Part shown: positions 3,639 through 57,794 of the stretch, in pieces
Position numbering within the stretch: the first letter of the stretch is position 1
Layout: every line of letters begins with the position of its first letter
DNA from: Nitrospirota bacterium
Lineage (GTDB): Bacteria; Nitrospirota; Thermodesulfovibrionia; Thermodesulfovibrionales; UBA6898
DNA length: 64,000 nucleotides
Direction: 5' to 3'
Assembly: GCA_016214855.1 (NCBI GenBank)
Contig: JACRMT010000006.1
Span: 1 to 64,000, forward strand
The notes under the pieces: model-generated
Databases searched by the model: none
Told to the model about the DNA's origin: nothing
Seen by the model: only the letters and a program-made list of their open reading frames with translations
Program-made: the position numbers and the translations under genes

Positions 3639-3701
3639 GGTACCTCCTGTTTATTTCAGATCGCTCTTTCAATGCTATCAAACATCACTCATCACGGCCT
3701 C

Positions 3702-20042: not shown

Positions 20043-20050
20043 GAGGGGAA

Positions 20051-35286: not shown

Positions 35287-35296
35287 AATACGTTAA

Positions 35297-35425
35297 ATGA
35301 GGGGACTGGGGACGATGATGGGGGGACAGAAACAACTGCTTTGTACGCTGATAGCGCTTAGTCTGCTGCTTTTTTCTCCGTCTTTAAGGCCATTAGGGGA
35401 CGTAGTTGAATCAGTTAGCTTATAG
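35297..35425 (+). pseudogene. truncated duplicate of the giant gene's leader
   Basis: An ATG at 35297 opens a 42-codon frame whose first 29 codons match the start of the giant gene at 35716 (one early difference, Arg for Gly). It then leaves the repeat and ends at TAG. It keeps a full signal-peptide hydrophobic core (CTLIALSLLLFSPS) but nothing behind it. Confidence 0.7.
35301..35383 (+). repeat. 83-bp direct repeat, left copy
   Basis: Identical over 83 bp to 35720-35802 (offset 419 bp); with one mismatch the match extends 5 bp further left. It includes three GGGGAC motifs near its left end and the sequence encoding the signal peptide of the giant protein. Confidence 0.97.
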
Positions 35426-35719
35426 AGGAAGGGTTGAAACAAAAGTTCATGCCAAGGCAAGCGCGACTTGATTTTCCTGGCACATTGCACCACGTAATAT
35501 GCCGAGGGATAGAGAAAAGAGATATAGTCACTGATGACAAAGACCGAGACAATTTTGTTGAGCGGATGGGCGGCATTGCAGAAAGGATAGGTAACTATGG
35601 GGTCAGACTTGCTTATTGACATTTGGGGTATAGCCAGACAGCATGATACGCAAATCGAGAATGGGTGAGCTGCCGGACGGGCAGTCGTTGTTAAACAAAA
35701 TGCAATAAAAATTGAATGG
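35384..35719. mobile_element. remnant insertion between the 83-bp repeats
   Basis: The 336-bp segment holds the transposase relic, a short hairpin (CTGCC 35670-35674, GGCAG 35680-35684) and otherwise no open frame. It separates the exported small protein gene from the giant gene. With the GGGGAC motifs at both flanks it looks like a decayed REP/RAYT unit. Confidence 0.65.
35449..35619 (+). pseudogene. relic of a REP-associated (IS200-like) tyrosine transposase
   Basis: The 56-residue frame starts MPRQARLDFPGTLHHVICRG and continues with EKRDIVTDDKDRDNFVERMG, the conserved N-terminus of RAYT / Y1-family transposases. It ends at TGA before the HUH motif and the catalytic Tyr, so it cannot be active. 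It lies between the two 83-bp direct repeats. Confidence 0.85.
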
Positions 35720-38700
35720 GGGGACTGGGGACGATGATGGGGGGACAGAAACAACTGCTTTGTACGCTGATAGCGCTTAGTCTGCTGCTTTTTTCTCCGT
35801 CTCTGTCTCATTCTGCTGACTTCATCGCTACAACTCTCGGCGACCAGGGTAACGTAACCGTGATGGAGGTCTCAGGCAACTACGACGCCAATAATCCTGA
35901 CGCCTCGACCAATACTGATCCGAGAAAGGTGATCGCAAAGGAATTCTACCGGCTTCATAAGGACGAATATGATTTCCTTGTCATCTTTTCCAATTTCGAC
36001 GTTAAAATGCCCGAGGTGGATGCAAGGGCATTCTATCTCCACGTAAAAAACGACACGCAGGGGATAGGCCAGCAGATATTCGACAATTCATGGCTCTTCG
36101 GCAGCAACGGCAAACTGCATGGCACCATAGACATGGGCAACATCACAGCGCTCATGACAGACCCTCTTGAGCCGACATTCGAAACCTCCCTCGATATCCT
36201 CAGCCACGAACTTATGCACAGGTGGGGCTCATATGTGAAGTTCATGACAGCGCAGGGCGTTGTCAGTTCTGCGCTTCTCGGCAAAGATCTGAGCCACTGG
36301 AGCTTCCTCCTTAATTCATACGGTTCTGTGCTTTACGGCAACCAGTGGCAGGACAATGGCAATGGCACATTTACATCAATAGCTGCCCGGAAATACTACA
36401 GCCCTCTTGACCTCTACCTCATGGGGTTTATCGATAAATCACAGGTGCCGCCCATGCTTCTGATCGATAACCCTGACATTGACCCAAAGCAGATGCCGGA
36501 GACAGGTATTACGATAACCGGTACCCCAACATATGTGACCATCGACCAGATCATTGCTGCAGAGGGCGAAAGGATACCGGGTCCAACAGAATCACAGAAA
36601 TCCTTTAAAACCGCCTTTATTTTCATAACAGCTCCGGGAACATTCACTGGCGATGAGCTGTATGGTATCGAGAACATCAGAAACGGCTGGGTCACGCGCT
36701 ATTCAGTGCTGAGTGACGGCAAGGGCATTATGCAGGTTTCATCAGCCCTCAGAGAAGATATCCCGACCAATCCCGGTATAACACTGCCACCTGTTACCCC
36801 AAGGACAGTTCCACCTAAGATCGAAGATGGTGTTGCGTGGCTTATGAATGACCAGAAGCCTGAGGGCCACTGGCTTGATATAACACAGACAGCGGAGAGG
36901 GACACTGCTGAGGCTGCTCGCTCCCTGAAGAATTTCGCGGTAGCGCAACAGAACTACAGCCTTGGACTTCAATGGCTGAACTCGATAGCTTCTGATAATA
37001 CTGATTATCTCTCACGAAAGATAGAGGCCATGGCGCAGGCAGGCCAGGATGTAACTATGCTGCTGCAGACCCTGATATCGCGGCAAAACCTTGATGGTGG
37101 GTGGGGGAGCAACAGGGAATATATGAGCAGCACTGCGGATACAGCATCTGTCCTGAAGGCTTTTTCCGTTGCCGGGTACGCAGACCCATCTGCTATTGGA
37201 AAGGCTGTCGCATACCTCAAGGCTAAGCAGAATCCTGATCAGGGATGGGGAAGTGACAATGTAAGCACTATCCAGTCAACGGCAAATGTGCTTACAGCTT
37301 TTAACAGGCTACAGTTATCAGCCGACAGTTATCAGCTAACAGACTATATCGCAAACGGCTTCGCTTGGCTACTTCAGAAGCAGAACCCTGACGGCGGGTT
37401 CGGCAACAGTCCGAGCACGATCTATGATACTGCCCATACTCTGCTGACGCTTGGTGTATTCGATATACCGATGGAGATTGCAAACAAGGCGGTGCAGTAT
37501 ATTCTCTCCTCCCAGTCAGAAGACGGCAGCTGGAACGAAAGCGCGTACCAGACGGCCCTTGCAGTTGAGGCAGTATGGAAGGCAACCGTAGACCCTGACC
37601 TATCGATAAAGAATACGGACATAACGTTCATACCGGCTTCTATTACAACTCTCCCCTCAAATATCGTGATCAATGCAGTTATAGGGAATACGGGAAGGAC
37701 AGGTGTGGCTGCTGCCAAGGTGGCGCTGTATGAAGGAGCAGTAGCAGAGGCAAACAAGATAGGCGAGCAGACCCTTGCATTCCCTGGCCAGTCATCGGTG
37801 AATGTGACGTTTAACGCAACGGCAAGGGACGGCAATGAGCACAGGTTCTATATTGTTGTTGATCCGGAAAATCTTATAAGAGAAGCGAATGAATCGAACA
37901 ATACAACACTGAAGATACTCTATCCTCTGGCAACGTATGATTTTGAGGTGCTCTCATCCGATTTATCCGTATCGGCGAACCCTGTCGATATATTCAAAGA
38001 CGTAAAAATAACCTCAAAAATAACAAATAAGGGCACGATGAATGCGTACAACGTGCAGATCAGGTATTTCATAGACGAGGCAGGCGCTCCCCTTGAGATA
38101 GGGACGTCAACAGTAAACATCCCGGCAGGCGCGACCATTACGAGTGAGATCATCTGGAAAACCAATAAGGCAGGCGTAAATCTTCCTTTGACTGTTTTGG
38201 CAGATCCGTTTAATACCTTTGTCGAGATCTTAAAGGAGAACAACAGGGCTGTTATGTATCTTACGGTGAATGGCTCGACAGAACCGAACCTTACGATATC
38301 GTATAAGGATATGGTGCTTACCCCTTCGCCTGCCAACGAAAGAGGGAGCGCGACTATCTCTGCCCTGGTCAAAAACGAAGGCTTTTCGACTGCAAATAAT
38401 ATAGCGGTGAATTTCTATAAGGGCGTGCCGGGTGTTGACGGAGTTCTTCTTGGTAGTCAGGTGATTCCCTCTCTCATCGCAGGAACGGGCAGTAGGGCAG
38501 CCATTGACTGGACGGATATCCAGGATGCAGGGGAGAGGATTATCTACGTCAAGGTAGATCCTTTGGGGCAGATAACAGAGATCAGCAAGGACGATAATGA
38601 CGCCTTTGTGCTGCTTGATATCCTGAGCCTGCCTGATCTTGCGATATCGACAAATTCCATTAAATTCAATCCTGCTGCTCCGAAGGATGGCGATATTGTC

Positions 38701-41700
38701 GCTATCGTGGTCACGGTCAAAAACCTGGGCATGCAGAGCGCTTCTAATGTTTCTGTAAAGGCAGTTGACGGGGATACGGTCATCGGCACAAAAACTATAT
38801 CAGTTATCGCAGGGAATGCCCAGGGGATAGTTTTATTCTCATATGACACAGCCGGCAAGAGCGGCGCTCATCAGATAACTGTAGCTGTTGACCCTGATAA
38901 TGCAATCGTGGAGCAGAGTGACGATAACAATAGCGCGACAAGGACTTTCGGCGTCCAGAATGCGAACCTATGGCTGACAGAACCGATCTTCTCACCGAAC
39001 GGAGATGGTATCAAGGACAGCACGCAACTCTTCTTCAGGCTGGATGTCCAGCAGACAGTAAGAGTGATCGTAGTCAACAAAAAAAGCGAAACAGTCAGGA
39101 CGTTCAGCGGAATTGAGCTTACAGATATAACAGGCGGGAATATTACCTGGGATGGTCTTAATGACATCGGGACAGTTGTAGCTGACGGTCAATATCAGAT
39201 AAAGGTGGTGGATTTAAACAATAACGTGCTCGGCAGTTTGCTGGTTATTCTGGACAACAACAGATCGCCCTTAACAGAGGCAATTGGGACAAAGTATCTC
39301 CTGAATACTAATCTGACATGCAACTTACCCCTCTCATTATATGAAAATTGGCAATGGCTTTCTGATGATGGCGGTATCATATTTTCCTTAAGCGGCACTG
39401 AGCATAATGTCCCGCAATATCCATCTGGAATTTATTTTATGTCTCCGACAGGAGATGATATTACAAGTATCTTGCCGATGACGCTGTCAGAAAACGATTT
39501 TGCTGATTTGTCCAGTTGGAAATTATCGCCTGATAAAACAAAAATAGCATTCTTGTCCTGGAAATATAATGCTAAGGAAAATATATATGCTCAGGAATTA
39601 TGGACATCAGATATTGAAGGAAAAAACCTGAGATTATTAATTCAGGTCGACCAGGCTGTTAATGATGAGGAAATATTTGAGATAAAATGGTCTCCAGACG
39701 GTAAATATCTTTTGTACAATATTGGCCCTGTTTATAAGTTGGGTTATAGAGCTTATGAACTCTGGATTATAAATATCGAAAATAAGTCTAATATTAAAAT
39801 TGATTCGGGATATTTTACGTTAACCCTTATTTCAGCGGAATGGTCACCTGATGGAACAGAAATAGCCTATTTAGCTTCTCCAACATATGAGGATGACGGT
39901 AATATGGCTACAGATGCGTTAAAAATATCTGATCTGCAGGGTAATAAGAAAAATATTTATCTGTTCAATAACTATACGTGGTGGGAGCCGATCCATTGGC
40001 TTGAAAACCAGAAAATATTAGTGGAACATCCGTCAATGAAACCTCAATTATGGCTTTTTGATGCCAGTGGAAACGGCAATCATATTAAAGTGGCGGACGA
40101 TTATGATGTCCTTTTTGTAGCGCCTGATAGGCAATCATTGGCGTTTCATACAACGGTTAGCGGTGGGCTTCTTACTGGGGGAATGATAAATATTTCTAAT
40201 ATGGATGGAAATATCACATATCAATATCAGAATTCGGATACTGATTATGTTTGGGATATAAATACAATGGGCGTTACATGGGCTCCGGATTCACAGGAAT
40301 TGGTTTTTTCTGAAATGGGTATTAAGAGTATCTGGGAATATTCGAATAGGCGGCATTATCTGACTGTTCTAAATATGAAAAGCAAGGCTACGGAATCGTT
40401 TGATCTTAGTCTAAAGGTAAATGATATCAACAGCTATATTAATTTATTTAACTGGCTTCCAGATAATGCAGCGATTTTGGCGTCACAAAACTATCTTTAT
40501 AATTACCCGGGCGATCTTTATGTGATTAATTCTGAAACCGGGGCATACACTCATCTTCTTTCAAATATGCAATTGCCCTGGGATTTAGATGCAGACAATA
40601 ATCAAGATGATTATAAATCTATATCACCACTCGGACAAATTATTGCCTATTACCCGAATAGGTATCAGGCGAGCGGATGTTATTACGACTATTATAAATC
40701 TAGCGACCTTTGGGGAATGAGTTCTTTGCTGAACCTTACAGCTGACCTGAGCGCAGTAAAGAACAAATCATACGTAATTCTGAAGGGGACAGCCGCAGAC
40801 CTGAATTTTGAAGGCTATATGCTCGAATATGCTGATGCCAAGACCCCTACTGTCTGGAACCTTGTTGGGCCGCCTTCTGATCTGCCTGTTATCAACAATG
40901 TGTTTACAACATGGGTGCCTCCGTATGAGGGTGTTTTCTTTGTGCGGCTGACAGTCTGGGATAAGGCAGGCAACATTAAACGTGAACAGAAGAGGGTCTC
41001 ATGGGGATTGTCATCAAGTATCACGAATCTTTATAAATCGACTGAGATATTTTCGCCAAACGGTGATGGAACAAAAGATACGGTTTCGCTGAATTACACG
41101 GTGTTGGAACCCATTCATCTGGAGTTCACTATTTATGATGAAAACAACAAGCTCATCAGGACATTCCTTAAAGACCATACAACTCCCTGCGCAGACAACA
41201 TAATCTGGGATGGCCGCGATAACACCGGCGACATCGTGCCTGACGGCAAATATACGATAAAAGTGTTCGATTACGAGTTCTTTTTGGAAGTGGATAATAC
41301 GCCGCCTGATCTGGATCTGGAACTGAGTGAGATTAAGCAGTATCAGAATAATTCGATGATGGGACCGGACGGACCGGACCTGATGACATTGGTCGTGCTC
41401 ATGAGAGGACTTGCTTATGACAAGAATCTTAAGTATTGGATAATTGAGTATGGGGAAGGAGATAATCCGCTAACGTGGTATGAATACAGCCGTGGAATGG
41501 ATCTGCTTGCAGCAAAAGATAACAATGGAAACGTTATCACTGATCCGATAGGGAATGCTGAAATAGCACAATATCACAATCAGGAAATCGCATCACTTGC
41601 GGGTCAAAGGTTCAGGATCACTGTTGAGGATCATGCAGGTAATAAGCGCACAGTTCAGTCGAACATGCTGGAGGAGCGCATGCTTCTGTATTTCCATTCA

Positions 41701-44700
41701 TGGGGCGCATTATATACGTCTGATTATGAATATTTCAAGGTGTATAGCTCAGGAGAATATCCGTCTTTAGAGCTGCCCAAAGAGCACATTCTGCAGGGAC
41801 TTGAGACTATAAGCGTTCCGATAACAATTATTAATCTCCAGTATTGGAGCGATTTGCAATGGCATGATGCATCACAACAGGACCACACCTCAGACGGTGA
41901 TATCTATATTGTATGGGATAGAGGCAAGGTTTTGTCTGAAATCGGAGCAGTTAGACTAAGGGCTATTGACATGTTCGGACAAGAGCACTATTCGAATACC
42001 GTAATGACGAAGTCACAGTTCACTATTGACCGCTGCGCTCCTCCGACAAGTGCTGCCCGGAATTATCTCTTTGAAAAATTGACACTGTTAAAGATGCAGA
42101 TACAAAGTGCTGATGATATACGCTTTGCTCAATGGACAGATTATCACATTGCCCAATCCCCCGATGTCCCGACAGGTACGTTTTCCCTTGCGCCACTGCC
42201 TGATCTTCGGACCGGGGCTGAATATCACTTCAGGATGATTGGAATAGGCGAAAGCGGCAGAGAATATATTGGTGAAGAGAACTCATCAGTCTGTGATCAG
42301 CCGAAAACACCTGAACTGAAACTGAACCTTTACGTAAAAGACTATGCAGAGGCCGATTGCGGACTGCTGTCTGATGGAAAAAGTGGACTTTCCTCAATGC
42401 TGTCAACAAAAAACCTGGCAGCCCCGATCACACTAAAAACCCTGAGCTACTATATCCAAATCAACGGTGCCCTTCAGCTCCTGCGTCAATTCGACCTGAC
42501 AAAAGAAAGCTGGGGCGCTGTCGGGATTGAAGCATCGGCCATGGCGGAAGGTAGCTATCCTGTAAGCGCTGTCCTGGACTATTTTGATACCCATGACTAT
42601 AAAGATAAAGAGCTGACAACTGAGGGCACCCTTATTGTCGATCGTACTCTGCCGGAAGCCAGGATAACATATCCGGACAAGTCTCAAACCCTCTGCCCTG
42701 TAAAACGCACGGATGCAAGGGGCGACTGGTTTGCGCTGCCTATCGAAGGCATTGCCCTGGACAACATTGCTGTAAAGAGGTATGAACTCTACTACGGATT
42801 TGGCGAAGCGCCTGAAACATGGAACCCTGCGCTGACACGGGTTCTGACAAAGGATGGTATAGAGCTTGTTTTGATCAAAGGGAAGGATGTAAAAGGCAAG
42901 CTTGGCGACTGGTATGTTGAAGGTATTCATGGAACAGTTTCCCTGAAACTGAAAGTGATCGATATTGCAGGCAATGTTACTTGCTACACGACAAGTTTCA
43001 CGGTCAAGGAAGTCATTGATTTCTCCAAGCCCATTGTAGACAAGCCTCTCTTTTCACCCAATAGGGACGGGCTCTTTGATGACGTTAATGTTACATACGA
43101 AATTAACGAATATGCCACGGTCGACCTTAAAGTTTATCCTCTTGCGCTGATAGACAATGATTTTGTGCTTGGTCAGTCGCCTGTGGGGACTATTGCTTCA
43201 GGAATAAGCCATCTCGGTGGAGAGGGATATGCAGCCTGGGAGGGCTTGACTGATGCCGGCATAGCACTGGATGGACATTATGGCATTGCAGTAATTGCAA
43301 CCGATGCCTGCGGAAATACGAGAACTCGCTGGACAGAGGTGGGGGTGGACAATGCACCGCCCTTAACCCTCATCAGTTATCCTGTGCCCGGAGATATTAT
43401 CGGCAATATTATCGAGGTCAAGGGGACTGTATCAGATGACAACTTCAGGAACTATCAACTTGAAGCAGCTCCAGAAGGCAGCACAAGCGAATGGCGTCTT
43501 ATTGCAAACAATGCAAATCCTGTTATGAATGATATCCTCGGAAAATGGAATACATACGGATTAAACGGCATCTGGACAGTTCGACTGACCGGATATGATG
43601 CGGTCGGCAACAAGAACGAGACTTATGTTGATATTGATCTTGGGGAGCGCAAGGACCTTATTAAAGATCTTGATATCAGCCCAAAGCATTTTTCGCCGAA
43701 CAATGACGGGAAACGGGATGTCGCCACAATTAAATATGAACTATCTTATGCAAGTAATGTAAAGATTGAGATACTTAATTCCGCCGGGACAGCTAAAAAG
43801 ACCTATACAACCATCACCCCATCTTTCGGCTCTTATACGTACATCTGGGACGGGACTGATGCTGTCGGTCTAACAGTTCCTGACGGCACATATGTCGTGA
43901 AGCTGACTGCCGAGCTTACTGCGAATCCGTCGGTCAACCAGTTCGAGGCGATCACGGTCGTTGTTGATACAAAAGCGCCGGTGATTGATATAAAGCAGCC
44001 GGTTTCCGGCTTCTATATCAAGACAACAGATATTTCAGTAAATGGTTCTCTGTCTGATCCGAATATCATGGAATACAGCATGACAGTGTTGTCCGACACA
44101 GGCACAGAGATGCTTGATCAGGGAAATCAGGACAGAATAGCTTACCATTTCGGCATGCTTTCCAGCCCTGCCGAAGGAGCCTATACGCTTAACATCAAGG
44201 CAAAGGACCTTGCCGAAAACTCAGTTGAGGAAAATATACCGTTTGTTATTGACAGAACGCCGCCCAAGGTAACCCTTGACACACCAAAGTCAGGTGAGTA
44301 TTTCGGCCATAATAAGGCCGAAATACTCATTACCGGCAGCATCGAGGAAAAGAACCTCGAAACATTTGAGCTTCGATATGCGTTGGGCGATACACCTGTG
44401 CAATGGACAGAACTGCTGAGAGGCACTGCTGTGCCGACCATGCCTCAGCTATTCACCTGGAAAGTCGGCAGGAACGACAACATGCCGGACGGCAATTATA
44501 CGTTGTCGCTTTTTGCGAAGGACAAGGCAGGACTGACAGGAGAGTCTAAAGTTAAAGTCACGGTAGATAACACTGCGCCGGAAACGGTTATTTCATCACC
44601 AATAGATGGCAGTTACATAAAATCAGCTCTGGATATTAAAGGCACTGCCTTCGATGCCAATCTCGATAAATGTACCGTTGAATTCTCAGAAGGCAACTGC

Positions 44701-47700
44701 CAGAGTGCCTTTAAATGGTCTACTCTCATGAGTTCGACGAAATCCGTTAAGGACGGTGTGTTGGCCAGAATGCAAATCCTTCCTGCAGAAGGCGACTACT
44801 GTATCAAGGTGGCCGCAATCGACAAGCTTGATAATAGATCAGAGGCCCGTGCAAAGATCACGATCGACACCCAGCCGCCTGCTGCCCCTTCGCTCTCAGG
44901 CAGGATTGAAAACAGAGCTGATATGCGAGTCACCTGGGCTGCCAATACAGAGCCTGACATTGCAGGATATGACCTTTACCGGGAAGGCAAGAAGCTTAAT
45001 ACAACGCTTCTTGCAGGACTTTCCTTCCTTGATGCTGATCTGACTGAAGGCACGTATACGTATATGCTTAAGGCCATTGACTATGCAGGCAATGAGAGCA
45101 AGCCTTCAAACGATGTGACGATCAAAATCGACCTGACCGGCCCCAATACACGTGTGCGGACGCCTCAGGATGGCGCACGGGTAAGCGGGCTCGTGGATAT
45201 CAAGGGCACGGCATACAGCGCAGATGATTTCAAGGAATATAGGATGTCAATAGGCAAGGGGCAGTCGCCTTCAGCATGGATGCTCCTCAGGACTTCTCCT
45301 GTTCCGGAGCCCTACGGCATTCTTGCGCAGTGGGACACAGCCGGGCTTACCGAAGACGAGCAATATACCATAAAGCTCGAAGCTGACGATATCAACGGCA
45401 ATACATCCGGCCACCAGATCACGGTGACGATTGACAACAGACCGCCTGCCGTGCCGTTGCTGCTTGCCGCCGTGCCGTCCGTTTCAGATGTTCAAGTGAC
45501 CTGGAAAGCCAATACAGAGCAGGACCTGGCCGGATATTTCCTCTACAGGAACGACCAGCTCGCAAATGTGCAGGGTATTGTTATCGGGAACCTGAAGCCG
45601 TATCTGATCGCAGCTACCGTTTATTCAGACAAGGGGCTTCCTGACGGGACCTATAAATACTCCCTGCTTGCAATGGACAGCGCCGGCAATCTGAGCGACC
45701 AGTCAAATAGCATTGAAGTGACGATAGATACGCGGCCGCCGCATGCTGCAATAGTGGACCCCGCAAATATGTCAAAGTTCGACAAGCAGATCCTTCTGAA
45801 GGCTGAATCTCTGGATATTGATATAGCGGGCATACAGTTCCAATACAGGAAGGCCTCTGATCAGGTGTGGATAACCCTCGGCGGCCCCATATCGCGGCAG
45901 CCTTATATTACCTTCCTTGATCCAATCGCCGTCGGCCTGACTGTTGGCGAATACCATTTCAGGGCGGTTGCCACGGACAAAGGCGGAAAGACCGACCCGA
46001 CTCCTGAATATGTTACGCTCACCTATTCTGACGTGACAGCTCCAGACTTGCCCATGGGGTTGAAGGCCCTGACTAAAGGCACTGATGTTACCCTTACATG
46101 GATGTCCAATCCTGCGGCCGATCTCGATGGGTACAACATATACAGAACATCAGGCAAAACACGGGCTAAGATAAATGCAGCTGTTATAAAAGAATCAACA
46201 TATCCGGACGCCAATCTTGGTGATGGCTCATATGACTATGAAGTTACCTCAATCGATACCTCCGGCAACGAAAGCAAACAGTCCAACAGTGTATCTGCGA
46301 GGATTTATGCTCCACTGTTGGTCCAACCCTACACACCTACAGGCAAGATGGCCCTGTCTGTCATCGGCAGAAACGCAGCAGCCAATGCAACAGTGCAGAT
46401 ATTTGCCGAGACTGTTTCCGGTCCTGAGTCGAGGGGCGCGACCAGTTCCGATGCTTCAGGAAACTTTGCTTTAGATTTCAGTCTTGCGCTCGGAGAAAAC
46501 AAGGTAACGTCAACATCAACGGACGCAGCCGGCAATATAAGCCGAGTTTCTGATATGGTGGTTGTCGTGTACAATGAGCCGCCATTGCTGCCAAAGGGAC
46601 TTCAGTCCGTTGTAAATGGCCACGATATTAATCTAACATGGGTACCCAATACTGAGGTCGACCTTGTGGGATATAACATCTTCAGAGGAGATGAAAAGCT
46701 CAATTCGCCGGTATCCATTATCTCAGGGAATGCAACATCATCATCCTACTATTATTACTATCAGCCTTCAAATGCCTTTGACGGGGATCCCAACTCATAC
46801 TGGCTTGACCTCAGTTACGGTACGTTTAGCCCTGTATGGCTTCAGATTGATTTGCCATCTCCTGAGTTGATAACCCATATGGAAATCAATTGGCTGGGTG
46901 ATGTATATGCGGGCAGCGATTATGAAGTTCAGACCTGGTCGGGGTATGCATGGATCACGCTGAAAAAGGTTGCCGGGAATACTGCGATGGTCAACAGCTT
47001 TGATTTCAAACCGTCTTATAGGACCGACAAGATAAGGATCTCTATAACCGGCACCATCAATCAGGACTACTACAAGCAGGTCGGCATATCCGAAATATCG
47101 ATCCTCAGAGACAACCTCCTGACAGAGGCCTCTTATAATGACCTTAATCTCAGCGATGAGAAATACGCATACTCGATTACTGCTGTGGATTATTACGGCT
47201 TTGAAAGCCTGCCTTCTGAGGAGGTAAAAGCAGAGGTTGGCGATGTAATACCTCCTGCTGCCCCTATAAGTCTGACAGCGGCGACCACAGGACAAGAGAT
47301 CAAACTTAGCTGGTCTGCGAATGCGGAGTCTGACCTTGCCGGATACAATCTCTACGGACTTGAGGCTCAAGCGTGGATCAGGCAAAACAGCTCTCTGATA
47401 ACTGACACAGCGTATAGGGACGCGGGACTGCCAAATGGTACATATACCTATAAGGTAACTGCTGTTGACTCAATCGGCAATGAAAGTCTGCCTTCCAATG
47501 AGGCGTCAGCTGATGTGTATGTTGCTGATACGGTTGCTCCGGCAGTACCTGTGCTCTTCTTCCCGACAATTGCAGGGCTTCCGATCATATTGCAGAAAGA
47601 CAGGACCGATGTCATGGGGTTTGCCGAGCCAGGCTCCTCTGTCACGCTCTATAAGTCCGGCATCTCAGTCGCCACGACATCAGCCTTAGAGGATGATGAT

Positions 47701-50700
47701 ATCAGCACTATCGCAATCGATTACGCTTGGGGCGATGCGACGCTTTCACCTGACGGCACGACCATTGCGTATATGGACAGCAATTATTCATTGTGGGTCA
47801 GGGATCTTGCATCCGGGACCGAAAAACAAGTTGCCCAATATGGCAACTCTCCGGTTTGGTCTTCTGATGGAAGTAAAATTGCATTTCAATACAATGAAGA
47901 CAGGAACGGCCAACAGAATTATCTTATTGGGATTTACGATATCAGGGCGGAAGCAGTTGCGCCACTTACCGGTGCAACTGACGATCCCTATATCGATGAA
48001 TACTACCCTTCCTGGTCATCGGATGGAAGCAGGATCGCTTTCATCAGCTATCAGGGCGGCTCTTATAATATTTGGTTTAAGGACTTCATGGCGGGAGATG
48101 TTAAGCAGCTGACACATGCCGGATATACCGTAGTCCTGAAGCTCTCGCCGGATGGCAAGAGACTTGCCTATATTGACGGTGACAATTATTACCTCTATGT
48201 AATGGATATCGCAAGCGGCGAGAGCATCCTTATTGATGATAAGGCGACCGCTGACTCTCTTGACTGGTCTCCTGACAGCAGAGCTCTTTTGTTTAGCTCA
48301 TCGGTGAATGGAAATGTTGACCTCTACCGTCACGATTTCCCTATGCATGTGAGGGCTCAGCTCACCAGTAATGCCGAATATGAGTTCGCTGCACAATGGT
48401 CTCCCGAGGGAAAAAGCATCTTCTTCGGACAGTACGACGGTAATTGGAATATGTCCTTAAGGATCATCTCGGCCGACGCCCCTCATGACGGCAGACTTCT
48501 CTCTACTGAGCCCGATCTTTATAATCTATCCTGGTTGAAATCAGGCGCCATAACTTTTGCAGACGGATCTATTTTGTTTTTTGTGCATCCCAAAGGGTAT
48601 TTCATGTACAGCGCTGTTGCTCTGGAGGCAGGGGAAAACCTTTTCACAGCGATAGCAACTGACTCCTCTGGCAACTCGGGTCAGCCCTCTGATGAAATCT
48701 CAGTTACATTTGAGACAAGCCAACTGCCTGACATCGAGACCCTGGCCGATGATATCTACCTATATCCTGCCGTCCCTGTTGACGGCCAGCAGCTCTTGAT
48801 GAATATCGTGGTCTGGAATAGGGGACAGACTGAGGCAATAAATGTAGTAGCAGACGTATATATCCAGGATGCATTCGGAAACCTGGAACGCATTAAATCT
48901 GTGAGCATCCCTCTTCTTTCACCCGGCTCAGGTGAGATAATCAGTATTTCGTGGGCTACCTTGGGCAGGAATGGCGCGAACAAACTGTTTGTAGTTCTTG
49001 ATCCAGCTAATATGCTAACCGAACAGAGAGAGGATAATAATATTGGAGAAAAAGAGTTCTATATTGTCACAGGCGAAGGCGTTTCTCTTTCCACGGTCTT
49101 AAGCGCAGCGCAGCTAATGCATGGTCAGGATACAGGCATAGACATAACCATCGTAAACAACGGGATTGCAAGAGAGGGTGTCCTCAATGTGGCTATCGAG
49201 GACGAGAATGGATATTCTGTGGCACTCCTGGACTCCAGAAACATTCATCTTGCTTATGGTTCTCAGGAACATTATGTATATACATGGAACACGGGTTCCA
49301 CTTATGCAGGTATGTACAGAGTGCGTGCTGCAGTGGGGGACGCCTCGGGTATCATAGCGGAGAAGATCGTGCCGTTTACCATACTGCCTGAGATCGCCAT
49401 TGAAGCGTCAGTTGTAACTGACAAGGCCCTGTACGGTCCGCATGAAAATGTTCAGGCAACCTTTATTCTCAGAAACAATGCTCATAATTACATTATCCCC
49501 GACTTGAAAATAAATAACCTGATTATGGACGCAGCCGGGACAGTGCTGTTTGCGGAGGAAAAGGATGTCAGAAACATGCTTTCTGGTATCACGGTTTCAT
49601 TCAGTGCGATATGGGATACAGGGCTGATTAAGCCGGGCAATTACTATGCAGCTATCAATATATATGACAACGGTCAGATGATCCTCAGCAAGACAGCACC
49701 ATTCATCATTGAGTCAGTGGTGACTGTTTCCGGATCGTTACTCGTTTCTCCGTCGATTGTTCTGCTCGGAAATACCGTGCATATGGATTATGCAGTTCTG
49801 AACGCTGGTAATAGTGACGCAATGGGTTTGACAATCAGGGTTTTAGTCGAAGACCCCGAAACGCAAGCGGTCCTGAAGACATTTGAAAATATGGTTGACC
49901 TTGGCATCAACAGCAGCACCTTAGGACAGTTCATCCTTTCCACACAGGGGCTGGGCTTAAAGAACTATACAGCGGCACTTCAATACGTATATCAAGGTGA
50001 TACGAGGTCTTTGGCAAAATCGCTATTCTCCGTGAGAGACGGTATGCCACCCGCAGTAACATTGATCTCACCCTCATCAGGCAGTCTTTTTAACTCCGCG
50101 ATTGATATCACGGCAATTGCTACAGATGATGCGTCAGGTGTTGATTGGGTCGAATTCCGGATAGACAACGGTTCGTGGAAACTGCTGCCGATAGCAGATC
50201 CATCTTCCGGAAGGTTTGCGACAACATGGTTGCCTGCGCGGGCTGATGAAGGAACCCATACCATTGACGTCAGAGCAACGGATAAATCAGGCAATGCTAG
50301 TCCGATAAGCTCAACGCTTCTCACTATCGACACAACAGCACCTGTATTGATTGTATCGACCCTTTCGGATGGCAGTTGGACAAAAAACGAGTTGTTAAAT
50401 GTAGCAGGAATAGTGACGGACAACATTGGTATTCAACAGGTTTCGATCAACGATACAGTAGTACCGCTAAACGTAGACAACAGCTTCAGCTATCCTATAA
50501 CTACGCAGGATGGGGAGAACGTAATTACCGTGACGGCAACAGATCTTGCAGGCAACCAGGCAATTGATACAAGGACGATCAACTTTGACCGGAGCGTGCC
50601 TGTGATAACGATAATCACTCCGGCCGACAATATAAAGACAATGCTTTTGCCGGTTGACCTCTCGGGCACTGTGGACGAACAGTCTTCAGTTGCCGTCGCG

Positions 50701-53184
50701 ATCAACGGATCTTTTCCTGTTCCAGCGATTATGGAAGGCAATAACTTCAGTCTGTCGGTCATTCCGGATTATGGGATTAATACGATAGAAGCGACGGCAA
50801 CAGATCGCGCCGGCAATACCTCAACAGCGAAGAGAACCATACTGTTTGACGATAGAAGTCCCTCACTTGCAGTCATTGATCCGACCCAGGACACAAAGAC
50901 GAACCAGACCGCAATGACGCTGAGAGGAAAAGTAGAGGATCTGACAGAAATCACTGTCAGGGTTACAATGGACGGCAACACATATGTACCTGCTATGGCT
51001 AATGGGACGTTCGAATTGCCGATTACATTTACTGCGGAAAAAGTATACCAGATCTACGTTACGGCAACTGATGAAGTCGGGAATGAGACAGCAGTGCAGA
51101 GAAACGTCTTATATGACATTACGGCTCCCATACTGACTGTAGACTCTGTGATAAGTCCTACGAGTATGGTCAGCCAGGTAGTGACCGGTCTTGTTGAGGC
51201 AGGAGCAATTGTCAGCGTTTCATGTCCCACAGCAAACATTGGTGTCGTCACGTATCCGACGCCTGAAACATGGGCAGTAACACTGCTGGATATGGAGGAG
51301 GGAACCCATATCATCGAGGTTACCGCCACTGACGAGGTCAGCAATATAAGCCAGACTGTTACGGCTGAGATAATTGTTGATCTGACATCTCCCTTAGTGA
51401 CTATTGCAGCACCTGCAAATGGAACTGACCATGTAGGCAAGGTGGACATTATTGCAATAGTCACGGATACCGGTGCTGGCGTAGGAAGCGTAGAATATCA
51501 AATTGATAGCGGTGATTGGAAACTCCTGTCTATGGCTGATCCTGCTGTGCATATGTATTCGGCAGTCTGGCTTCCTGTCCTGTCTGACGAAGGGACACAT
51601 ATGATCAACATCAGGGCCTCTGACAGGCTCGGCTTCATGAGCAACCCTGTGTCCGTTACTTTTGAAGTGAAATCTGATCAGAATTCAGACATCGAGATTG
51701 AAAAGACGATTCCGAATGTCAGAAATGTGCTGCTCTGGATCAACGACGGCTGCCATGAAAGCAATGAAGAATTGACCGGCTCGCAATATGGGACTGGAAA
51801 GAGCTTTCTATCGGGATATCCCGACGGCAACGGAGAAGGCGACGGATGCCGTGAAGAGAATATGGGAAGACTGAGCGCAGATACTTCTATCTCAAATGAA
51901 GAGGACACAGGCGACGACGAAGATTCGTCAGAGGGCGAGCATGAATGCAGAAAGTGCCTCAGGAGTGACCTTGTCGAAAGAGTCCTTGGTGAGTCAGCCA
52001 CGAGCCATTCCATAGTTTATTCTGCGAAGGACTTTCAGCACGAGTTGAGAAATCCGTATTACACAGACATTTTGATCCTCGGCAATCGGTATCCGCTGGA
52101 AGATCACTACTGGGAAGAACTCAGGGAAAAGGTCAATGCCGGTGTCGGGCTGGTATCCTCTCTCTGGATGAGGCGCGGAACTGATGAGCAGAATGAAACA
52201 TATGATCCCATACTGGGGATCCGGTATAAAGGAAGGCTGCCCGGGAGAACTCATAAGATCCGCACTGTCCAGAGCCCCATTACCGGCGCAGACAGAATTG
52301 ATTCAAAGGGCAAAGCGGAGCGGATCGAAACCGGACAGGGGACTGCAATCGCCGGCTGGCTTGAAACCGATGAATGCGAGAAAGGACGTCGCAGATCTGA
52401 TTACCAGATTAATGGCTGTATTGACGACGGGCAAAAAATGTCCTGCGAAAGCCCTGCCATTGTTTTAAACAAGTATGGAAAGGGGAGGGCGGTATTCATT
52501 GCCTTTGATATAGGAGAAACTCTGAATGACAAAACCTATTCGCAGATGACAGCCCTTATAAAGAACTCTCTGACATACGCCCACAGCGTCTCTGACATCA
52601 ACACCTTCGGACCGGGAAGTCTTGTCCCTGTAGAGATCAGCCTCAGTAGCCTCGGTAGCGCTTCCGACCTTAAAGTGACGGAGTCGTATTCTACGGCACT
52701 GAAGATATATGATCCGACAACAGAGGAGTGGATTACAGCAAACCCGTGGATTAATCGGCTGAAACTCGGGGTGAGCGAAACTGCGTCGATTCTTTATTAC
52801 GCCCTATTGCCCGACAGAGGGGGGATCTACACGCTGAAGACGGATATAAGTTATTTGGAAAATGGCATCTATAATCCATACAAGAGTATTTCCAATGATC
52901 TTGTCGTGGCTAACGACTTTAGCGCCTCGCTGTCCGACGTATTATGTGCTCTAGACGAGCTGGACTCAAGAAACAGCCAGGAAGTGAAGAACGCCAGGAG
53001 AATACTTCAGCTCATGCTCCTGCGTGACGCAAACACGAGGCAGACTATTGAGGCGAATATACACGGCGTCTTATCGGCTATACATCTAATTCTGGGGGTT
53101 AATTCGGACACATTCCGTGTCAGGACCATGATGGATGAACTCCTTAAGGGTCTGGAAAGCAGATACTATTACCTTGGCAATTAA
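35716..53184 (+). CDS. 5822-residue secreted multidomain mosaic protein
   Basis: A single 17.5-kb frame. The signal peptide begins at 35716 or, more likely, at the second ATG pair (35734/35737, just after GGGG), ending near HSADF. Domains in order: putative zinc peptidase with HELMHRW (164-170) and HWSFL (194); prenyltransferase-like alpha toroid with QxxDGGWG repeats (371-625); four CARDB Ig domains (629-1082); FlgD-Ig (1085-1170, FSPNGDG); beta-propeller (about 1190-1660); FlgD-Ig modules at 1779, 2446 and 2659; Ig-like and fibronectin III modules (2755-3900), with a discoidin domain at 3667-3799; a second propeller (about 4000-4290); CARDB-like and Ig modules (4336-5319); an acidic linker; an amidotransferase-like domain (about 5425-5625) and a helical tail. 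No sorting motif or membrane anchor is seen at the C-terminus. Probable cell-surface or extracellular adhesin/processing protein; function unknown. Confidence 0.85.
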   Translation: MGGLGTMMGGQKQLLCTLIALSLLLFSPSLSHSADFIATTLGDQGNVTVMEVSGNYDANNPDASTNTDPRKVIAKEFYRLHKDEYDFLVIFSNFDVKMPEVDARAFYLHVKNDTQGIGQQIFDNSWLFGSNGKLHGTIDMGNITALMTDPLEPTFETSLDILSHELMHRWGSYVKFMTAQGVVSSALLGKDLSHWSFLLNSYGSVLYGNQWQDNGNGTFTSIAARKYYSPLDLYLMGFIDKSQVPPMLLIDNPDIDPKQMPETGITITGTPTYVTIDQIIAAEGERIPGPTESQKSFKTAFIFITAPGTFTGDELYGIENIRNGWVTRYSVLSDGKGIMQVSSALREDIPTNPGITLPPVTPRTVPPKIEDGVAWLMNDQKPEGHWLDITQTAERDTAEAARSLKNFAVAQQNYSLGLQWLNSIASDNTDYLSRKIEAMAQAGQDVTMLLQTLISRQNLDGGWGSNREYMSSTADTASVLKAFSVAGYADPSAIGKAVAYLKAKQNPDQGWGSDNVSTIQSTANVLTAFNRLQLSADSYQLTDYIANGFAWLLQKQNPDGGFGNSPSTIYDTAHTLLTLGVFDIPMEIANKAVQYILSSQSEDGSWNESAYQTALAVEAVWKATVDPDLSIKNTDITFIPASITTLPSNIVINAVIGNTGRTGVAAAKVALYEGAVAEANKIGEQTLAFPGQSSVNVTFNATARDGNEHRFYIVVDPENLIREANESNNTTLKILYPLATYDFEVLSSDLSVSANPVDIFKDVKITSKITNKGTMNAYNVQIRYFIDEAGAPLEIGTSTVNIPAGATITSEIIWKTNKAGVNLPLTVLADPFNTFVEILKENNRAVMYLTVNGSTEPNLTISYKDMVLTPSPANERGSATISALVKNEGFSTANNIAVNFYKGVPGVDGVLLGSQVIPSLIAGTGSRAAIDWTDIQDAGERIIYVKVDPLGQITEISKDDNDAFVLLDILSLPDLAISTNSIKFNPAAPKDGDIVAIVVTVKNLGMQSASNVSVKAVDGDTVIGTKTISVIAGNAQGIVLFSYDTAGKSGAHQITVAVDPDNAIVEQSDDNNSATRTFGVQNANLWLTEPIFSPNGDGIKDSTQLFFRLDVQQTVRVIVVNKKSETVRTFSGIELTDITGGNITWDGLNDIGTVVADGQYQIKVVDLNNNVLGSLLVILDNNRSPLTEAIGTKYLLNTNLTCNLPLSLYENWQWLSDDGGIIFSLSGTEHNVPQYPSGIYFMSPTGDDITSILPMTLSENDFADLSSWKLSPDKTKIAFLSWKYNAKENIYAQELWTSDIEGKNLRLLIQVDQAVNDEEIFEIKWSPDGKYLLYNIGPVYKLGYRAYELWIINIENKSNIKIDSGYFTLTLISAEWSPDGTEIAYLASPTYEDDGNMATDALKISDLQGNKKNIYLFNNYTWWEPIHWLENQKILVEHPSMKPQLWLFDASGNGNHIKVADDYDVLFVAPDRQSLAFHTTVSGGLLTGGMINISNMDGNITYQYQNSDTDYVWDINTMGVTWAPDSQELVFSEMGIKSIWEYSNRRHYLTVLNMKSKATESFDLSLKVNDINSYINLFNWLPDNAAILASQNYLYNYPGDLYVINSETGAYTHLLSNMQLPWDLDADNNQDDYKSISPLGQIIAYYPNRYQASGCYYDYYKSSDLWGMSSLLNLTADLSAVKNKSYVILKGTAADLNFEGYMLEYADAKTPTVWNLVGPPSDLPVINNVFTTWVPPYEGVFFVRLTVWDKAGNIKREQKRVSWGLSSSITNLYKSTEIFSPNGDGTKDTVSLNYTVLEPIHLEFTIYDENNKLIRTFLKDHTTPCADNIIWDGRDNTGDIVPDGKYTIKVFDYEFFLEVDNTPPDLDLELSEIKQYQNNSMMGPDGPDLMTLVVLMRGLAYDKNLKYWIIEYGEGDNPLTWYEYSRGMDLLAAKDNNGNVITDPIGNAEIAQYHNQEIASLAGQRFRITVEDHAGNKRTVQSNMLEERMLLYFHSWGALYTSDYEYFKVYSSGEYPSLELPKEHILQGLETISVPITIINLQYWSDLQWHDASQQDHTSDGDIYIVWDRGKVLSEIGAVRLRAIDMFGQEHYSNTVMTKSQFTIDRCAPPTSAARNYLFEKLTLLKMQIQSADDIRFAQWTDYHIAQSPDVPTGTFSLAPLPDLRTGAEYHFRMIGIGESGREYIGEENSSVCDQPKTPELKLNLYVKDYAEADCGLLSDGKSGLSSMLSTKNLAAPITLKTLSYYIQINGALQLLRQFDLTKESWGAVGIEASAMAEGSYPVSAVLDYFDTHDYKDKELTTEGTLIVDRTLPEARITYPDKSQTLCPVKRTDARGDWFALPIEGIALDNIAVKRYELYYGFGEAPETWNPALTRVLTKDGIELVLIKGKDVKGKLGDWYVEGIHGTVSLKLKVIDIAGNVTCYTTSFTVKEVIDFSKPIVDKPLFSPNRDGLFDDVNVTYEINEYATVDLKVYPLALIDNDFVLGQSPVGTIASGISHLGGEGYAAWEGLTDAGIALDGHYGIAVIATDACGNTRTRWTEVGVDNAPPLTLISYPVPGDIIGNIIEVKGTVSDDNFRNYQLEAAPEGSTSEWRLIANNANPVMNDILGKWNTYGLNGIWTVRLTGYDAVGNKNETYVDIDLGERKDLIKDLDISPKHFSPNNDGKRDVATIKYELSYASNVKIEILNSAGTAKKTYTTITPSFGSYTYIWDGTDAVGLTVPDGTYVVKLTAELTANPSVNQFEAITVVVDTKAPVIDIKQPVSGFYIKTTDISVNGSLSDPNIMEYSMTVLSDTGTEMLDQGNQDRIAYHFGMLSSPAEGAYTLNIKAKDLAENSVEENIPFVIDRTPPKVTLDTPKSGEYFGHNKAEILITGSIEEKNLETFELRYALGDTPVQWTELLRGTAVPTMPQLFTWKVGRNDNMPDGNYTLSLFAKDKAGLTGESKVKVTVDNTAPETVISSPIDGSYIKSALDIKGTAFDANLDKCTVEFSEGNCQSAFKWSTLMSSTKSVKDGVLARMQILPAEGDYCIKVAAIDKLDNRSEARAKITIDTQPPAAPSLSGRIENRADMRVTWAANTEPDIAGYDLYREGKKLNTTLLAGLSFLDADLTEGTYTYMLKAIDYAGNESKPSNDVTIKIDLTGPNTRVRTPQDGARVSGLVDIKGTAYSADDFKEYRMSIGKGQSPSAWMLLRTSPVPEPYGILAQWDTAGLTEDEQYTIKLEADDINGNTSGHQITVTIDNRPPAVPLLLAAVPSVSDVQVTWKANTEQDLAGYFLYRNDQLANVQGIVIGNLKPYLIAATVYSDKGLPDGTYKYSLLAMDSAGNLSDQSNSIEVTIDTRPPHAAIVDPANMSKFDKQILLKAESLDIDIAGIQFQYRKASDQVWITLGGPISRQPYITFLDPIAVGLTVGEYHFRAVATDKGGKTDPTPEYVTLTYSDVTAPDLPMGLKALTKGTDVTLTWMSNPAADLDGYNIYRTSGKTRAKINAAVIKESTYPDANLGDGSYDYEVTSIDTSGNESKQSNSVSARIYAPLLVQPYTPTGKMALSVIGRNAAANATVQIFAETVSGPESRGATSSDASGNFALDFSLALGENKVTSTSTDAAGNISRVSDMVVVVYNEPPLLPKGLQSVVNGHDINLTWVPNTEVDLVGYNIFRGDEKLNSPVSIISGNATSSSYYYYYQPSNAFDGDPNSYWLDLSYGTFSPVWLQIDLPSPELITHMEINWLGDVYAGSDYEVQTWSGYAWITLKKVAGNTAMVNSFDFKPSYRTDKIRISITGTINQDYYKQVGISEISILRDNLLTEASYNDLNLSDEKYAYSITAVDYYGFESLPSEEVKAEVGDVIPPAAPISLTAATTGQEIKLSWSANAESDLAGYNLYGLEAQAWIRQNSSLITDTAYRDAGLPNGTYTYKVTAVDSIGNESLPSNEASADVYVADTVAPAVPVLFFPTIAGLPIILQKDRTDVMGFAEPGSSVTLYKSGISVATTSALEDDDISTIAIDYAWGDATLSPDGTTIAYMDSNYSLWVRDLASGTEKQVAQYGNSPVWSSDGSKIAFQYNEDRNGQQNYLIGIYDIRAEAVAPLTGATDDPYIDEYYPSWSSDGSRIAFISYQGGSYNIWFKDFMAGDVKQLTHAGYTVVLKLSPDGKRLAYIDGDNYYLYVMDIASGESILIDDKATADSLDWSPDSRALLFSSSVNGNVDLYRHDFPMHVRAQLTSNAEYEFAAQWSPEGKSIFFGQYDGNWNMSLRIISADAPHDGRLLSTEPDLYNLSWLKSGAITFADGSILFFVHPKGYFMYSAVALEAGENLFTAIATDSSGNSGQPSDEISVTFETSQLPDIETLADDIYLYPAVPVDGQQLLMNIVVWNRGQTEAINVVADVYIQDAFGNLERIKSVSIPLLSPGSGEIISISWATLGRNGANKLFVVLDPANMLTEQREDNNIGEKEFYIVTGEGVSLSTVLSAAQLMHGQDTGIDITIVNNGIAREGVLNVAIEDENGYSVALLDSRNIHLAYGSQEHYVYTWNTGSTYAGMYRVRAAVGDASGIIAEKIVPFTILPEIAIEASVVTDKALYGPHENVQATFILRNNAHNYIIPDLKINNLIMDAAGTVLFAEEKDVRNMLSGITVSFSAIWDTGLIKPGNYYAAINIYDNGQMILSKTAPFIIESVVTVSGSLLVSPSIVLLGNTVHMDYAVLNAGNSDAMGLTIRVLVEDPETQAVLKTFENMVDLGINSSTLGQFILSTQGLGLKNYTAALQYVYQGDTRSLAKSLFSVRDGMPPAVTLISPSSGSLFNSAIDITAIATDDASGVDWVEFRIDNGSWKLLPIADPSSGRFATTWLPARADEGTHTIDVRATDKSGNASPISSTLLTIDTTAPVLIVSTLSDGSWTKNELLNVAGIVTDNIGIQQVSINDTVVPLNVDNSFSYPITTQDGENVITVTATDLAGNQAIDTRTINFDRSVPVITIITPADNIKTMLLPVDLSGTVDEQSSVAVAINGSFPVPAIMEGNNFSLSVIPDYGINTIEATATDRAGNTSTAKRTILFDDRSPSLAVIDPTQDTKTNQTAMTLRGKVEDLTEITVRVTMDGNTYVPAMANGTFELPITFTAEKVYQIYVTATDEVGNETAVQRNVLYDITAPILTVDSVISPTSMVSQVVTGLVEAGAIVSVSCPTANIGVVTYPTPETWAVTLLDMEEGTHIIEVTATDEVSNISQTVTAEIIVDLTSPLVTIAAPANGTDHVGKVDIIAIVTDTGAGVGSVEYQIDSGDWKLLSMADPAVHMYSAVWLPVLSDEGTHMINIRASDRLGFMSNPVSVTFEVKSDQNSDIEIEKTIPNVRNVLLWINDGCHESNEELTGSQYGTGKSFLSGYPDGNGEGDGCREENMGRLSADTSISNEEDTGDDEDSSEGEHECRKCLRSDLVERVLGESATSHSIVYSAKDFQHELRNPYYTDILILGNRYPLEDHYWEELREKVNAGVGLVSSLWMRRGTDEQNETYDPILGIRYKGRLPGRTHKIRTVQSPITGADRIDSKGKAERIETGQGTAIAGWLETDECEKGRRRSDYQINGCIDDGQKMSCESPAIVLNKYGKGRAVFIAFDIGETLNDKTYSQMTALIKNSLTYAHSVSDINTFGPGSLVPVEISLSSLGSASDLKVTESYSTALKIYDPTTEEWITANPWINRLKLGVSETASILYYALLPDRGGIYTLKTDISYLENGIYNPYKSISNDLVVANDFSASLSDVLCALDELDSRNSQEVKNARRILQLMLLRDANTRQTIEANIHGVLSAIHLILGVNSDTFRVRTMMDELLKGLESRYYYLGN
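35720..35802 (+). repeat. 83-bp direct repeat, right copy
   Basis: Right copy of the repeat at 35301-35383. It forms the first codons of the giant gene, so the open frame depends on it for its secretion signal. Confidence 0.97.
37308..37345 (+). repeat. TCAGC-type short repeats in the giant gene
   Basis: ACAGTTATCAGC occurs twice, 15 nt apart, translated as LQLSADSYQLTD between two helical toroid repeats; same family as 28525-28579. Confidence 0.6.
44295..44329. repeat. 14-bp perfect inverted repeat with 7-nt loop inside the giant gene
   Basis: TGAGTATTTCGGCC (44295-44308), loop ATAATAA, GGCCGAAATACTCA (44316-44329). It encodes GEYFGHNKAEIL at a strand turn of an Ig-like module. The stem would be very stable in the mRNA. 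Confidence 0.95.
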
Positions 53185-57736: not shown

Positions 57737-57753
57737 TTTGCTATAATACAGGC

Positions 57754-57790
57754 AACCCCTGGCTATCCAAACGGTGGCCAGGGGTTTTTT
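57754..57790 (+). terminator. rho-independent terminator after the OmpA-family gene
   Basis: AACCCCTGGC (57754-57763) pairs with GCCAGGGGTT (57777-57786), 13-nt loop, then a T run to 57790. The right arm lies directly before the next gene's start. Confidence 0.9.
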
Positions 57791-57794
57791 ATTT

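What the first reader, a model, noticed from the sequence alone, without database searches (positions are those of the whole stretch)
35716..53184. A 5822-residue secreted mosaic protein of unknown function
One uninterrupted 17.5-kb frame takes up over a quarter of the window. It combines a putative zinc peptidase, a prenyltransferase-type alpha toroid, CARDB, FlgD-Ig, two beta-propellers, fibronectin III, discoidin, Ig-like and amidotransferase-like domains. This mix of catalytic-looking ends and a very long adhesive middle is unusual. It may be a surface-spanning adhesin or a processing scaffold.
Basis: partly seen in the sequence, partly recalled or inferred. Interest (0 to 1): 0.75.

Follow-up and report, generated by a model that had tools for sequence, protein, structure and literature searches.

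The report
Conserved giant surface protein with peptidase head
A bacterium of the phylum Nitrospirota carries a real, conserved, roughly 600-kDa secreted protein with an unclassified zinc-peptidase-like head on a long chain of binding domains, and across four bacterial phyla it is repeatedly encoded beside proteins of the inactive-transglutaminase/RHS toxin type, which suggests a role in cell-surface interactions or warfare rather than a random mosaic.

Summary
The 17.5-kb frame is real and is one gene of a conserved family, not an assembly chimera. Single-frame relatives of 5,382-6,426 aa occur in other Nitrospirota, Geobacteraceae, Dokdonella, Tahibacter and Archangium, aligned collinearly, at best over 5,808 of 5,822 residues.

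The N-terminal head has an invariant HExxHxW plus HW motif and a confident AlphaFold model (pLDDT 92), yet matches no Pfam family or PDB fold significantly. A terpene-cyclase-type toroid without DxDD follows, then CARDB, FlgD-Ig, two propellers, Ig/Fn3-like and discoidin domains. The C-terminal GATase/ThuA-like domain has no conserved triad and is replaced in some lineages, so only one end looks catalytic.

The main new point is the neighbourhood. A transglutaminase(TG)-like gene lies beside the giant: upstream in Nitrospirota and Geobacteraceae, downstream in Dokdonella, Tahibacter and Archangium. Its triad is lost outside Nitrospirota, its C-terminus varies (esterase/lipase, phosphodiesterase, PKD), and in Dokdonella it runs into RHS repeats, the published inactive-TG polymorphic-toxin layout.

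Best reading: a Sec-exported surface stalk with a peptidase head, working with TG/RHS-type effectors. Delivery, substrate and function are inferred, not shown.

The parts
35716..35814 (+). Signal peptide region (residues 1-33); translation probably starts at ATG 35734 or 35737
   Evidence: sequence; hydrophobic stretch, purine-rich run just upstream of 35734
35815..36750 (+). Putative zinc peptidase head, residues 34-345; HELMHRW at 36205-36225 (H164, E165, H168, W170) and HW at 36295-36300 (H194, W195)
   Evidence: H164/E165/H168/W170/H194/W195 invariant in 28 relatives; AF2 pLDDT 91.7; no Pfam, PDB-sequence or significant fold match
36811..37575 (+). QW-repeat alpha-alpha toroid, residues 366-620
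   Evidence: SQHop_cyclase_C 1.7e-15; Foldseek to squalene-hopene cyclase and MstE, prob 1.00; no DxDD motif
37588..38970 (+). CARDB repeats, residues 625-1085
   Evidence: PF07705 6.3e-31, three stretches here plus more in the next chunk
38971..39270 (+). FlgD-type Ig domain 1, residues 1086-1185
   Evidence: PF13860/NF009276
39283..40785 (+). beta-propeller 1, residues ~1190-1690
   Evidence: PD40 9e-5, TolB propeller 4.6e-7
41068..41265 (+). FlgD-type Ig domain 2, residues 1785-1850
   Evidence: PF13860 8.4e-16
43726..43914 (+). FlgD-type Ig domain 3, residues 2671-2733
   Evidence: PF13860 1.5e-11
43918..46665 (+). Run of Big_13/Fn3-like domains, residues ~2735-3650
   Evidence: PF19077 1.6e-31, six stretches
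46732..47064 (+). Discoidin (F5/8 type C) domain, residues 3673-3783
   Evidence: PF00754 1.8e-13
47695..48735 (+). beta-propeller 2 (TolB-like), residues ~3994-4340
   Evidence: PD40 5.2e-22; TIGR02800 3.8e-32
48754..49044 (+). CARDB domain, residues ~4347-4443
   Evidence: PF07705 7.9e-15
50050..51690 (+). Big_7 / Glucodextran_B Ig-like array, residues ~4779-5325
   Evidence: PF09136 7.5e-30, PF17957 8.8e-17
51715..53184 (+). C-terminal GATase/ThuA-like domain, Ig-like domain and helical tail, residues 5334-5822; non-catalytic by conservation, replaced in some relatives
   Evidence: alignment of 20 C-termini; weak GH42M hit 0.008; swaps
28139..29329 (+). Transglutaminase-like partner, 5' part; C-H-D triad present
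   Evidence: PF01841 1.6e-11; triad; intact relatives are one 1848-2105-aa frame
29241..33965 (+). Transglutaminase-like partner, 3' part: Big_1-like region and C-terminal alpha/beta-hydrolase; separated from the 5' part by a deletion plus frame change (about 140 TG-core residues missing)
   Evidence: tblastn of relatives; Pfam
33962..34930 (+). Conserved 322-aa secreted protein of unknown family
   Evidence: 42-46% identical homologues in the same position in G003 and Geobacteraceae
34933..35286 (+). 117-aa secreted protein resembling the PilP/GspC periplasmic domain (below Pfam cut-off)
   Evidence: PilP 0.0035, T2SSC 0.0094; conserved just upstream of giants in Nitrospirota, Geobacteraceae and Dokdonella
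35293..35383 (+). First copy of a 91-bp direct repeat (start and signal-peptide region of the giant gene)
   Evidence: the repeat finder, 98% identity
35449..35619 (+). Remnant of a Y1/REP-associated transposase between the repeat copies
   Evidence: translation MPRQARLDFPGTLHHVICRG...; an intact Y1_Tnp gene lies in the equivalent place in L066
35712..35802 (+). Second copy of the 91-bp direct repeat, used by the giant gene

Best explanation
The frame encodes one Sec-exported, roughly 600-kDa cell-surface or extracellular stalk protein of a conserved family. Its N-terminal head is an HExxH zinc peptidase of an unclassified family, joined by a flexible linker to a non-cyclising terpene-cyclase-type toroid that probably binds a ligand. 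The body is a chain of Ig-like, CARDB, FlgD, propeller and discoidin domains that holds the head away from the cell and binds glycan or protein surfaces. It acts together with the neighbouring TG-like protein, which belongs to, or derives from, the inactive-transglutaminase class of polymorphic (RHS-type) toxins and carries a swappable C-terminal effector-like domain (esterase/lipase, phosphodiesterase, or RHS plus toxin). Shown: the single gene, the domains, conserved order in four phyla, invariant peptidase motif, repeated adjacency to TG-like genes in both gene orders, loss of the TG triad outside Nitrospirota, RHS continuation in Dokdonella. Inferred: surface location, active protease, physical partnership with the TG protein, use in contact with other cells. 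The PilP/GspC-like small gene hints at export through a secretin (type II-like) route; this is inferred only.
For: Single frames and collinearity. Peptidase motif invariant in 28 proteins from Nitrospirota, Geobacteraceae, Xanthomonadales, Archangium and Acidobacteria; confident model. The same domain sits in unrelated architectures beside CARDB and PPC domains, as secreted peptidases do: (L085). Toroid fold; flexible linker (pLDDT about 32) and pTM 0.67. TG gene beside the giant; 12 of 14 genomes with a giant or its remnant also carry a TG relative of at least 50% identity against 3 of 107 without (Fisher p 3e-12, species not independent); 19 of 42 TG loci within 10 kb of a toroid hit. In the window's genome all three TG loci lie beside giant, remnant or toroid genes. 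TG triad loss. RHS repeats: (Dokdonella TG-RHS followed by a 221-aa gene; RHS frames upstream in L070). Published inactive-TG RHS toxins: PMC3482391. Five secretins in the genome.
Against: No RHS repeats in the window's own TG protein, and that gene is broken here, so the partner may be decaying while the giant stays intact. The TG triad is intact in Nitrospirota, so a catalytic TG role there is not excluded. Some giants have no TG gene in the adjacent sequence read (G113, G009, G130, G169, G336). No immunity gene was recognised in the window. The peptidase model matches no solved zincin fold, so the enzyme assignment rests on motif and secondary structure. No membrane anchor was found, so 'surface' is inferred.
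Confidence: 0.45

Rival explanations
1. A plain giant biofilm or attachment adhesin. The peptidase and toroid are accessory domains, and TG adjacency reflects a shared surface-protein island (hitch-hiking), not joint action.
For: Ig/CARDB/Fn3/discoidin content typical of adhesins; the C-terminus is non-catalytic; patchy presence, 28 of 396 Nitrospirota genomes by the peptidase domain; CARDB and Fn3 surface proteins are read as adhesins elsewhere (PMC10553843).
Against: The most conserved part is the peptidase head (62-74% identity within Nitrospirota giants; motif invariant across phyla), not the adhesive middle. The TG pairing is kept in four phyla with inverted gene order.
Confidence: 0.3
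2. A secreted degradative enzyme: a nutrient-scavenging protease on a long carbohydrate- or protein-binding chain.
For: Peptidase domain reused in other secreted architectures with PPC, CARDB and PKD; binding domains common in secreted hydrolases.
Against: Size and strict collinearity far exceed what a hydrolase needs; repeated pairing with TG/RHS genes is unexplained.
Confidence: 0.12
3. The TG-like protein is a processing protease for the giant, as LapG is for LapA.
For: A papain-fold gene sits beside a giant Ig-rich protein; the triad is present in Nitrospirota.
Against: Triad lost in Geobacteraceae, Dokdonella, Tahibacter and Archangium although the gene pair is kept; the Pfam match is Transglut_core, not the LapG family; the giant begins with a Sec-type signal peptide.
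Confidence: 0.06
4. An assembly chimera or a frame fused from separate genes.
For: None found.
Against: Collinear single frames in 13 other genomes.
Confidence: 0.01

Closest known systems
Inactive-transglutaminase RHS polymorphic toxins (Zhang et al. 2012, PMC3482391)
   Same: Signal peptide, TG-like domain with lost triad residues, Ig-like domains, RHS repeats and a variable C-terminus; met by the Dokdonella neighbour.
   Different: These features are in the neighbouring gene. The giant itself has no RHS repeats. The window's TG protein has an alpha/beta-hydrolase instead of RHS, keeps the triad and is broken.
Giant biofilm adhesins (LapA/BapA type)
   Same: Thousands of residues, chains of Ig-like domains, extracellular.
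   Different: Sec-type signal peptide; no RTX or type I secretion signal hit; catalytic-type head; two propellers.
Terpene cyclase / complement TED alpha-alpha toroids
   Same: Fold and QW repeats.
   Different: No DxDD acid motif and no thioester cysteine in the toroid.
HExxHxW zincins (M1 aminopeptidases, M12-like)
   Same: HExxHxW on a helix; weak hits to M1 and Reprolysin_3.
   Different: No significant sequence or fold match; the invariant third candidate ligand is His 26 residues after the second His.
Huge bacterial surface proteins (PMC11573180)
   Same: More than 5000 aa, Big_13/Glucodextran_B-rich.
   Different: This family keeps a fixed domain order across phyla and a conserved partner gene.

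Membership tests
Inactive-TG polymorphic toxin (neighbour gene) | N-terminal TG-like domain after a signal peptide | tested here: met
Inactive-TG polymorphic toxin (neighbour gene) | Loss of one or more of the C, H, D triad residues | tested here: not met
   Triad intact in the window and other Nitrospirota; lost in Geobacteraceae, Dokdonella, Tahibacter and Archangium
Inactive-TG polymorphic toxin (neighbour gene) | RHS repeat array following the TG domain | tested here: not met
   Absent in the window; present in the Dokdonella homologue
Inactive-TG polymorphic toxin (neighbour gene) | Different C-terminal effector domains in close relatives | tested here: met
   alpha/beta-hydrolase, esterase/lipase, phosphodiesterase, PKD, RHS
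Zinc metallopeptidase (zincin) | HExxH motif conserved across the family | tested here: met
   invariant in 28 members
Zinc metallopeptidase (zincin) | Zincin fold matching solved structures | tested here: inconclusive
   pLDDT 92 but no significant PDB match
Zinc metallopeptidase (zincin) | Proteolytic activity and bound metal | not testable with these tools
   needs a bench assay
Class II terpene cyclase | alpha-alpha toroid fold | tested here: met
Class II terpene cyclase | DxDD catalytic motif | tested here: not met
   alignment of 21 toroids
LapA-type adhesin | RTX / type I secretion C-terminus | tested here: not met
   no such hit at the C-terminus; Sec-type signal peptide
Class I glutamine amidotransferase | Conserved Cys-His-Glu triad | tested here: not met

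The most novel reading that the evidence does not exclude
The giant is one half of an undescribed two-component surface system in which a zinc-peptidase-headed stalk of about 5,400-6,400 aa captures a target cell or matrix and presents or activates a TG-headed effector protein with exchangeable C-terminal domains. It would be related to RHS polymorphic toxins but have a dedicated giant partner.
Probability: 0.2. Interest if true: 0.8.

Novelty: new variant of a known kind. Interest (0 to 1): 0.52.

Why it matters
Giant secreted proteins are usually set aside as lineage-specific, fast-evolving mosaics. This one keeps the same order of domains over 5,400 or more residues across four phyla, carries a peptidase-like domain absent from current family libraries, and keeps a partner gene of a known toxin-scaffold class even when the gene order is reversed. 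That makes a function in cell-cell interaction testable in cultured relatives (Dokdonella, Tahibacter) instead of in an uncultured Nitrospirota. The conserved head also gives a marker for finding the system in other genomes.

Tried and rejected
Assembly chimera or fused genes: rejected by collinear homologues. TG as a LapG-like processing protease: disfavoured by triad loss. Toroid as an active cyclase or thioester domain: no DxDD and no cysteine. C-terminal amidotransferase activity: no triad. Peptidase identity by PDB sequence search, PDB fold search, viral fold search and Pfam over all members: no significant match. Transfer of the giant between Nitrospirota and Geobacteraceae: Geobacteraceae join inside Nitrospirota in the free tree, but one Nitrospirota clade is not rejected (AU p 0.34), so no claim is made. 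Literature searches for the giant family itself found nothing specific. A look-up of an E. coli record served no purpose. Structures were predicted only with sequences from the sources that the structure tool lists, so the C-terminal domain was not modelled.

Full report
Observation. The frame 35716-53184 (+) is open for 5822 codons. The window lies on contig 6 of a 3.3-Mb, near-complete genome. Named relatives place it in the Nitrospirota. A purine-rich run directly precedes the ATGs at 35734/35737, so translation may begin six or seven codons into the listed frame.

Domains. Pfam and NCBIfam confirm CARDB, FlgD-Ig, TolB-like propellers, a discoidin domain, many Ig-like domains and a squalene-hopene-cyclase-like toroid. 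The first 310 residues after the signal peptide match no Pfam family. In 28 homologues, H164, E165, H168, W170, H194 and W195 (protein numbering) are invariant. AlphaFold gives pLDDT 91.7 and pTM 0.89, with HExxH on a long helix after a strand. Neither Foldseek against the PDB and viral models nor profile search of PDB sequences finds a significant relative. The only hints are very weak matches to M1 and reprolysin families. I therefore call it a putative zincin of an unclassified family. A two-domain model of head plus toroid has a low-confidence linker and pTM 0.67. Its toroid matches squalene-hopene cyclase, MstE and complement C3d-type toroids but lacks DxDD, and the region has no cysteine. 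The C-terminal module (5334-5822) is GATase/ThuA-like but shows no conserved Cys-His-Glu set in 20 sequences. It is replaced in some relatives by a beta-helix-like stretch (G042, L066), an acidic tail (L076) or another tail (Dokdonella).

One gene, one family. Relatives in single frames are 6137 (G009), 6151 (G100), 6426 (G042), 5382 (G113), 5537 (G023), 5434 (G336), 5864 (G130) and 5439 aa (G169) in Nitrospirota, 5738 and 5464 aa in Geobacteraceae, 5886 in Dokdonella, 5922 in Tahibacter and 6085 in Archangium. Collinear chains cover 76-100% of the window protein in Nitrospirota and Geobacteraceae and 59-77% in the other two groups. G130 aligns over 5808 residues at 34% in one stretch. Some copies are broken or truncated (G003, G018, G021, G054, G092, Geotalea toluenoxydans). 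The peptidase domain occurs in 28 of 396 sampled Nitrospirota genomes, in 24 of 170 genera. It also occurs in the C-terminal part of other secreted proteins of 1.6-4.2 kaa (G020, G030, G036, G048, G075, L083) and in Acidobacteria with CARDB and PPC domains. It is thus a mobile extracellular module, more like an enzyme acting on other molecules than a self-processing device (inference).

Neighbourhood. Upstream in the window are a TG-like gene (28139-29329), a frame with Big_1-like and alpha/beta-hydrolase regions (29241-33965), a 322-aa gene and a 117-aa gene resembling the PilP/GspC domain. In relatives the first two are one protein of 1848-2105 aa. In the window about 140 residues and the frame are lost at the join. 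The PilP-like gene lies just upstream of giants in Nitrospirota, Geobacteraceae and Dokdonella. In Dokdonella, Tahibacter and Archangium the TG gene instead lies immediately downstream of the giant. In the sampled genomes, 12 of 14 with a giant (or its remnant) have a TG relative of at least 50% identity against 3 of 107 without (Fisher p 3e-12; species are related, so this overstates the evidence). Nineteen of 42 TG loci lie within 10 kb of a toroid hit, although many others are on contig ends. The window's own genome has three TG loci, each beside a giant, its remnant or a toroid paralogue. Exceptions are G113, G009, G130, G169 and G336, where no TG gene is seen in the adjacent sequence read.

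What the partner is. The C-terminal part of the TG protein differs: alpha/beta-hydrolase in the window and Geobacteraceae, esterase/lipase in L061, PKD and a short tail in G042, type I phosphodiesterase in G100 and DUF6531 with RHS repeats in Dokdonella. The Dokdonella protein goes on through 18 RHS repeats to a unique end and a 221-aa gene in the position of an immunity gene. At one more Nitrospirota locus (L070), RHS frames lie upstream of the giant. The only RHS frame in the window's genome lies beside a toroid remnant. The C-H-D triad is intact in Nitrospirota but is A-H-D in Geobacteraceae, V-Q-x in Dokdonella and Tahibacter and A in Archangium. Zhang et al. 2012 described such inactive TG domains, followed by RHS repeats and sometimes Ig domains, as N-terminal parts of polymorphic toxins, and proposed surface anchoring (PMC3482391).

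Interpretation. The best-supported reading is a secreted stalk with a peptidase-like head working with a TG-headed effector-type protein. The pairing and domain facts are shown; surface location, activity and joint action are inferred. The main rival is an adhesin in a surface-protein island with incidental TG neighbours. The window's broken TG gene, its intact triad and the giants without TG neighbours keep confidence at 0.45.

Novelty. The parts are known kinds. The fixed giant architecture across phyla, the unclassified peptidase-like head and the coupling to TG/RHS proteins make it a new variant.

Noticed in passing
window 35293-35802: A 91-bp, 98% identical direct repeat of the giant gene's start and signal-peptide region flanks a Y1/REP-associated transposase remnant; Y1-type transposase genes sit near giant or TG genes in L066, L076, G021, G018 and G000 contig 4 too.
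   Followed up: partly
window 28139-33965; L117 (G000 contig 4): Both close TG copies in this genome are broken within the TG core, at different positions; the contig-4 copy is followed by a remnant of the giant's N-terminus.
   Followed up: partly
L050 (G000 contig 13): Paralogous locus: TG-like gene and a 3022-aa protein with several toroid stretches and eight CARDB stretches but no peptidase head.
   Followed up: partly
L083 7031-14862; L074; L075: The peptidase domain in the C-terminal part of 1.6-4.2-kaa proteins, followed by conserved genes of about 200 and 770 aa; those tested have no Pfam hits.
   Followed up: no
window 19032-22051: Multihaem cytochrome (CXXCH) beside a weak MtrB/PioB-like porin gene, suggesting an extracellular electron transfer conduit.
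   Followed up: no
window 56732-59555: FG-GAP/integrin-alpha-like repeat protein beside an OmpA-family gene, a further surface-protein candidate.
   Followed up: no
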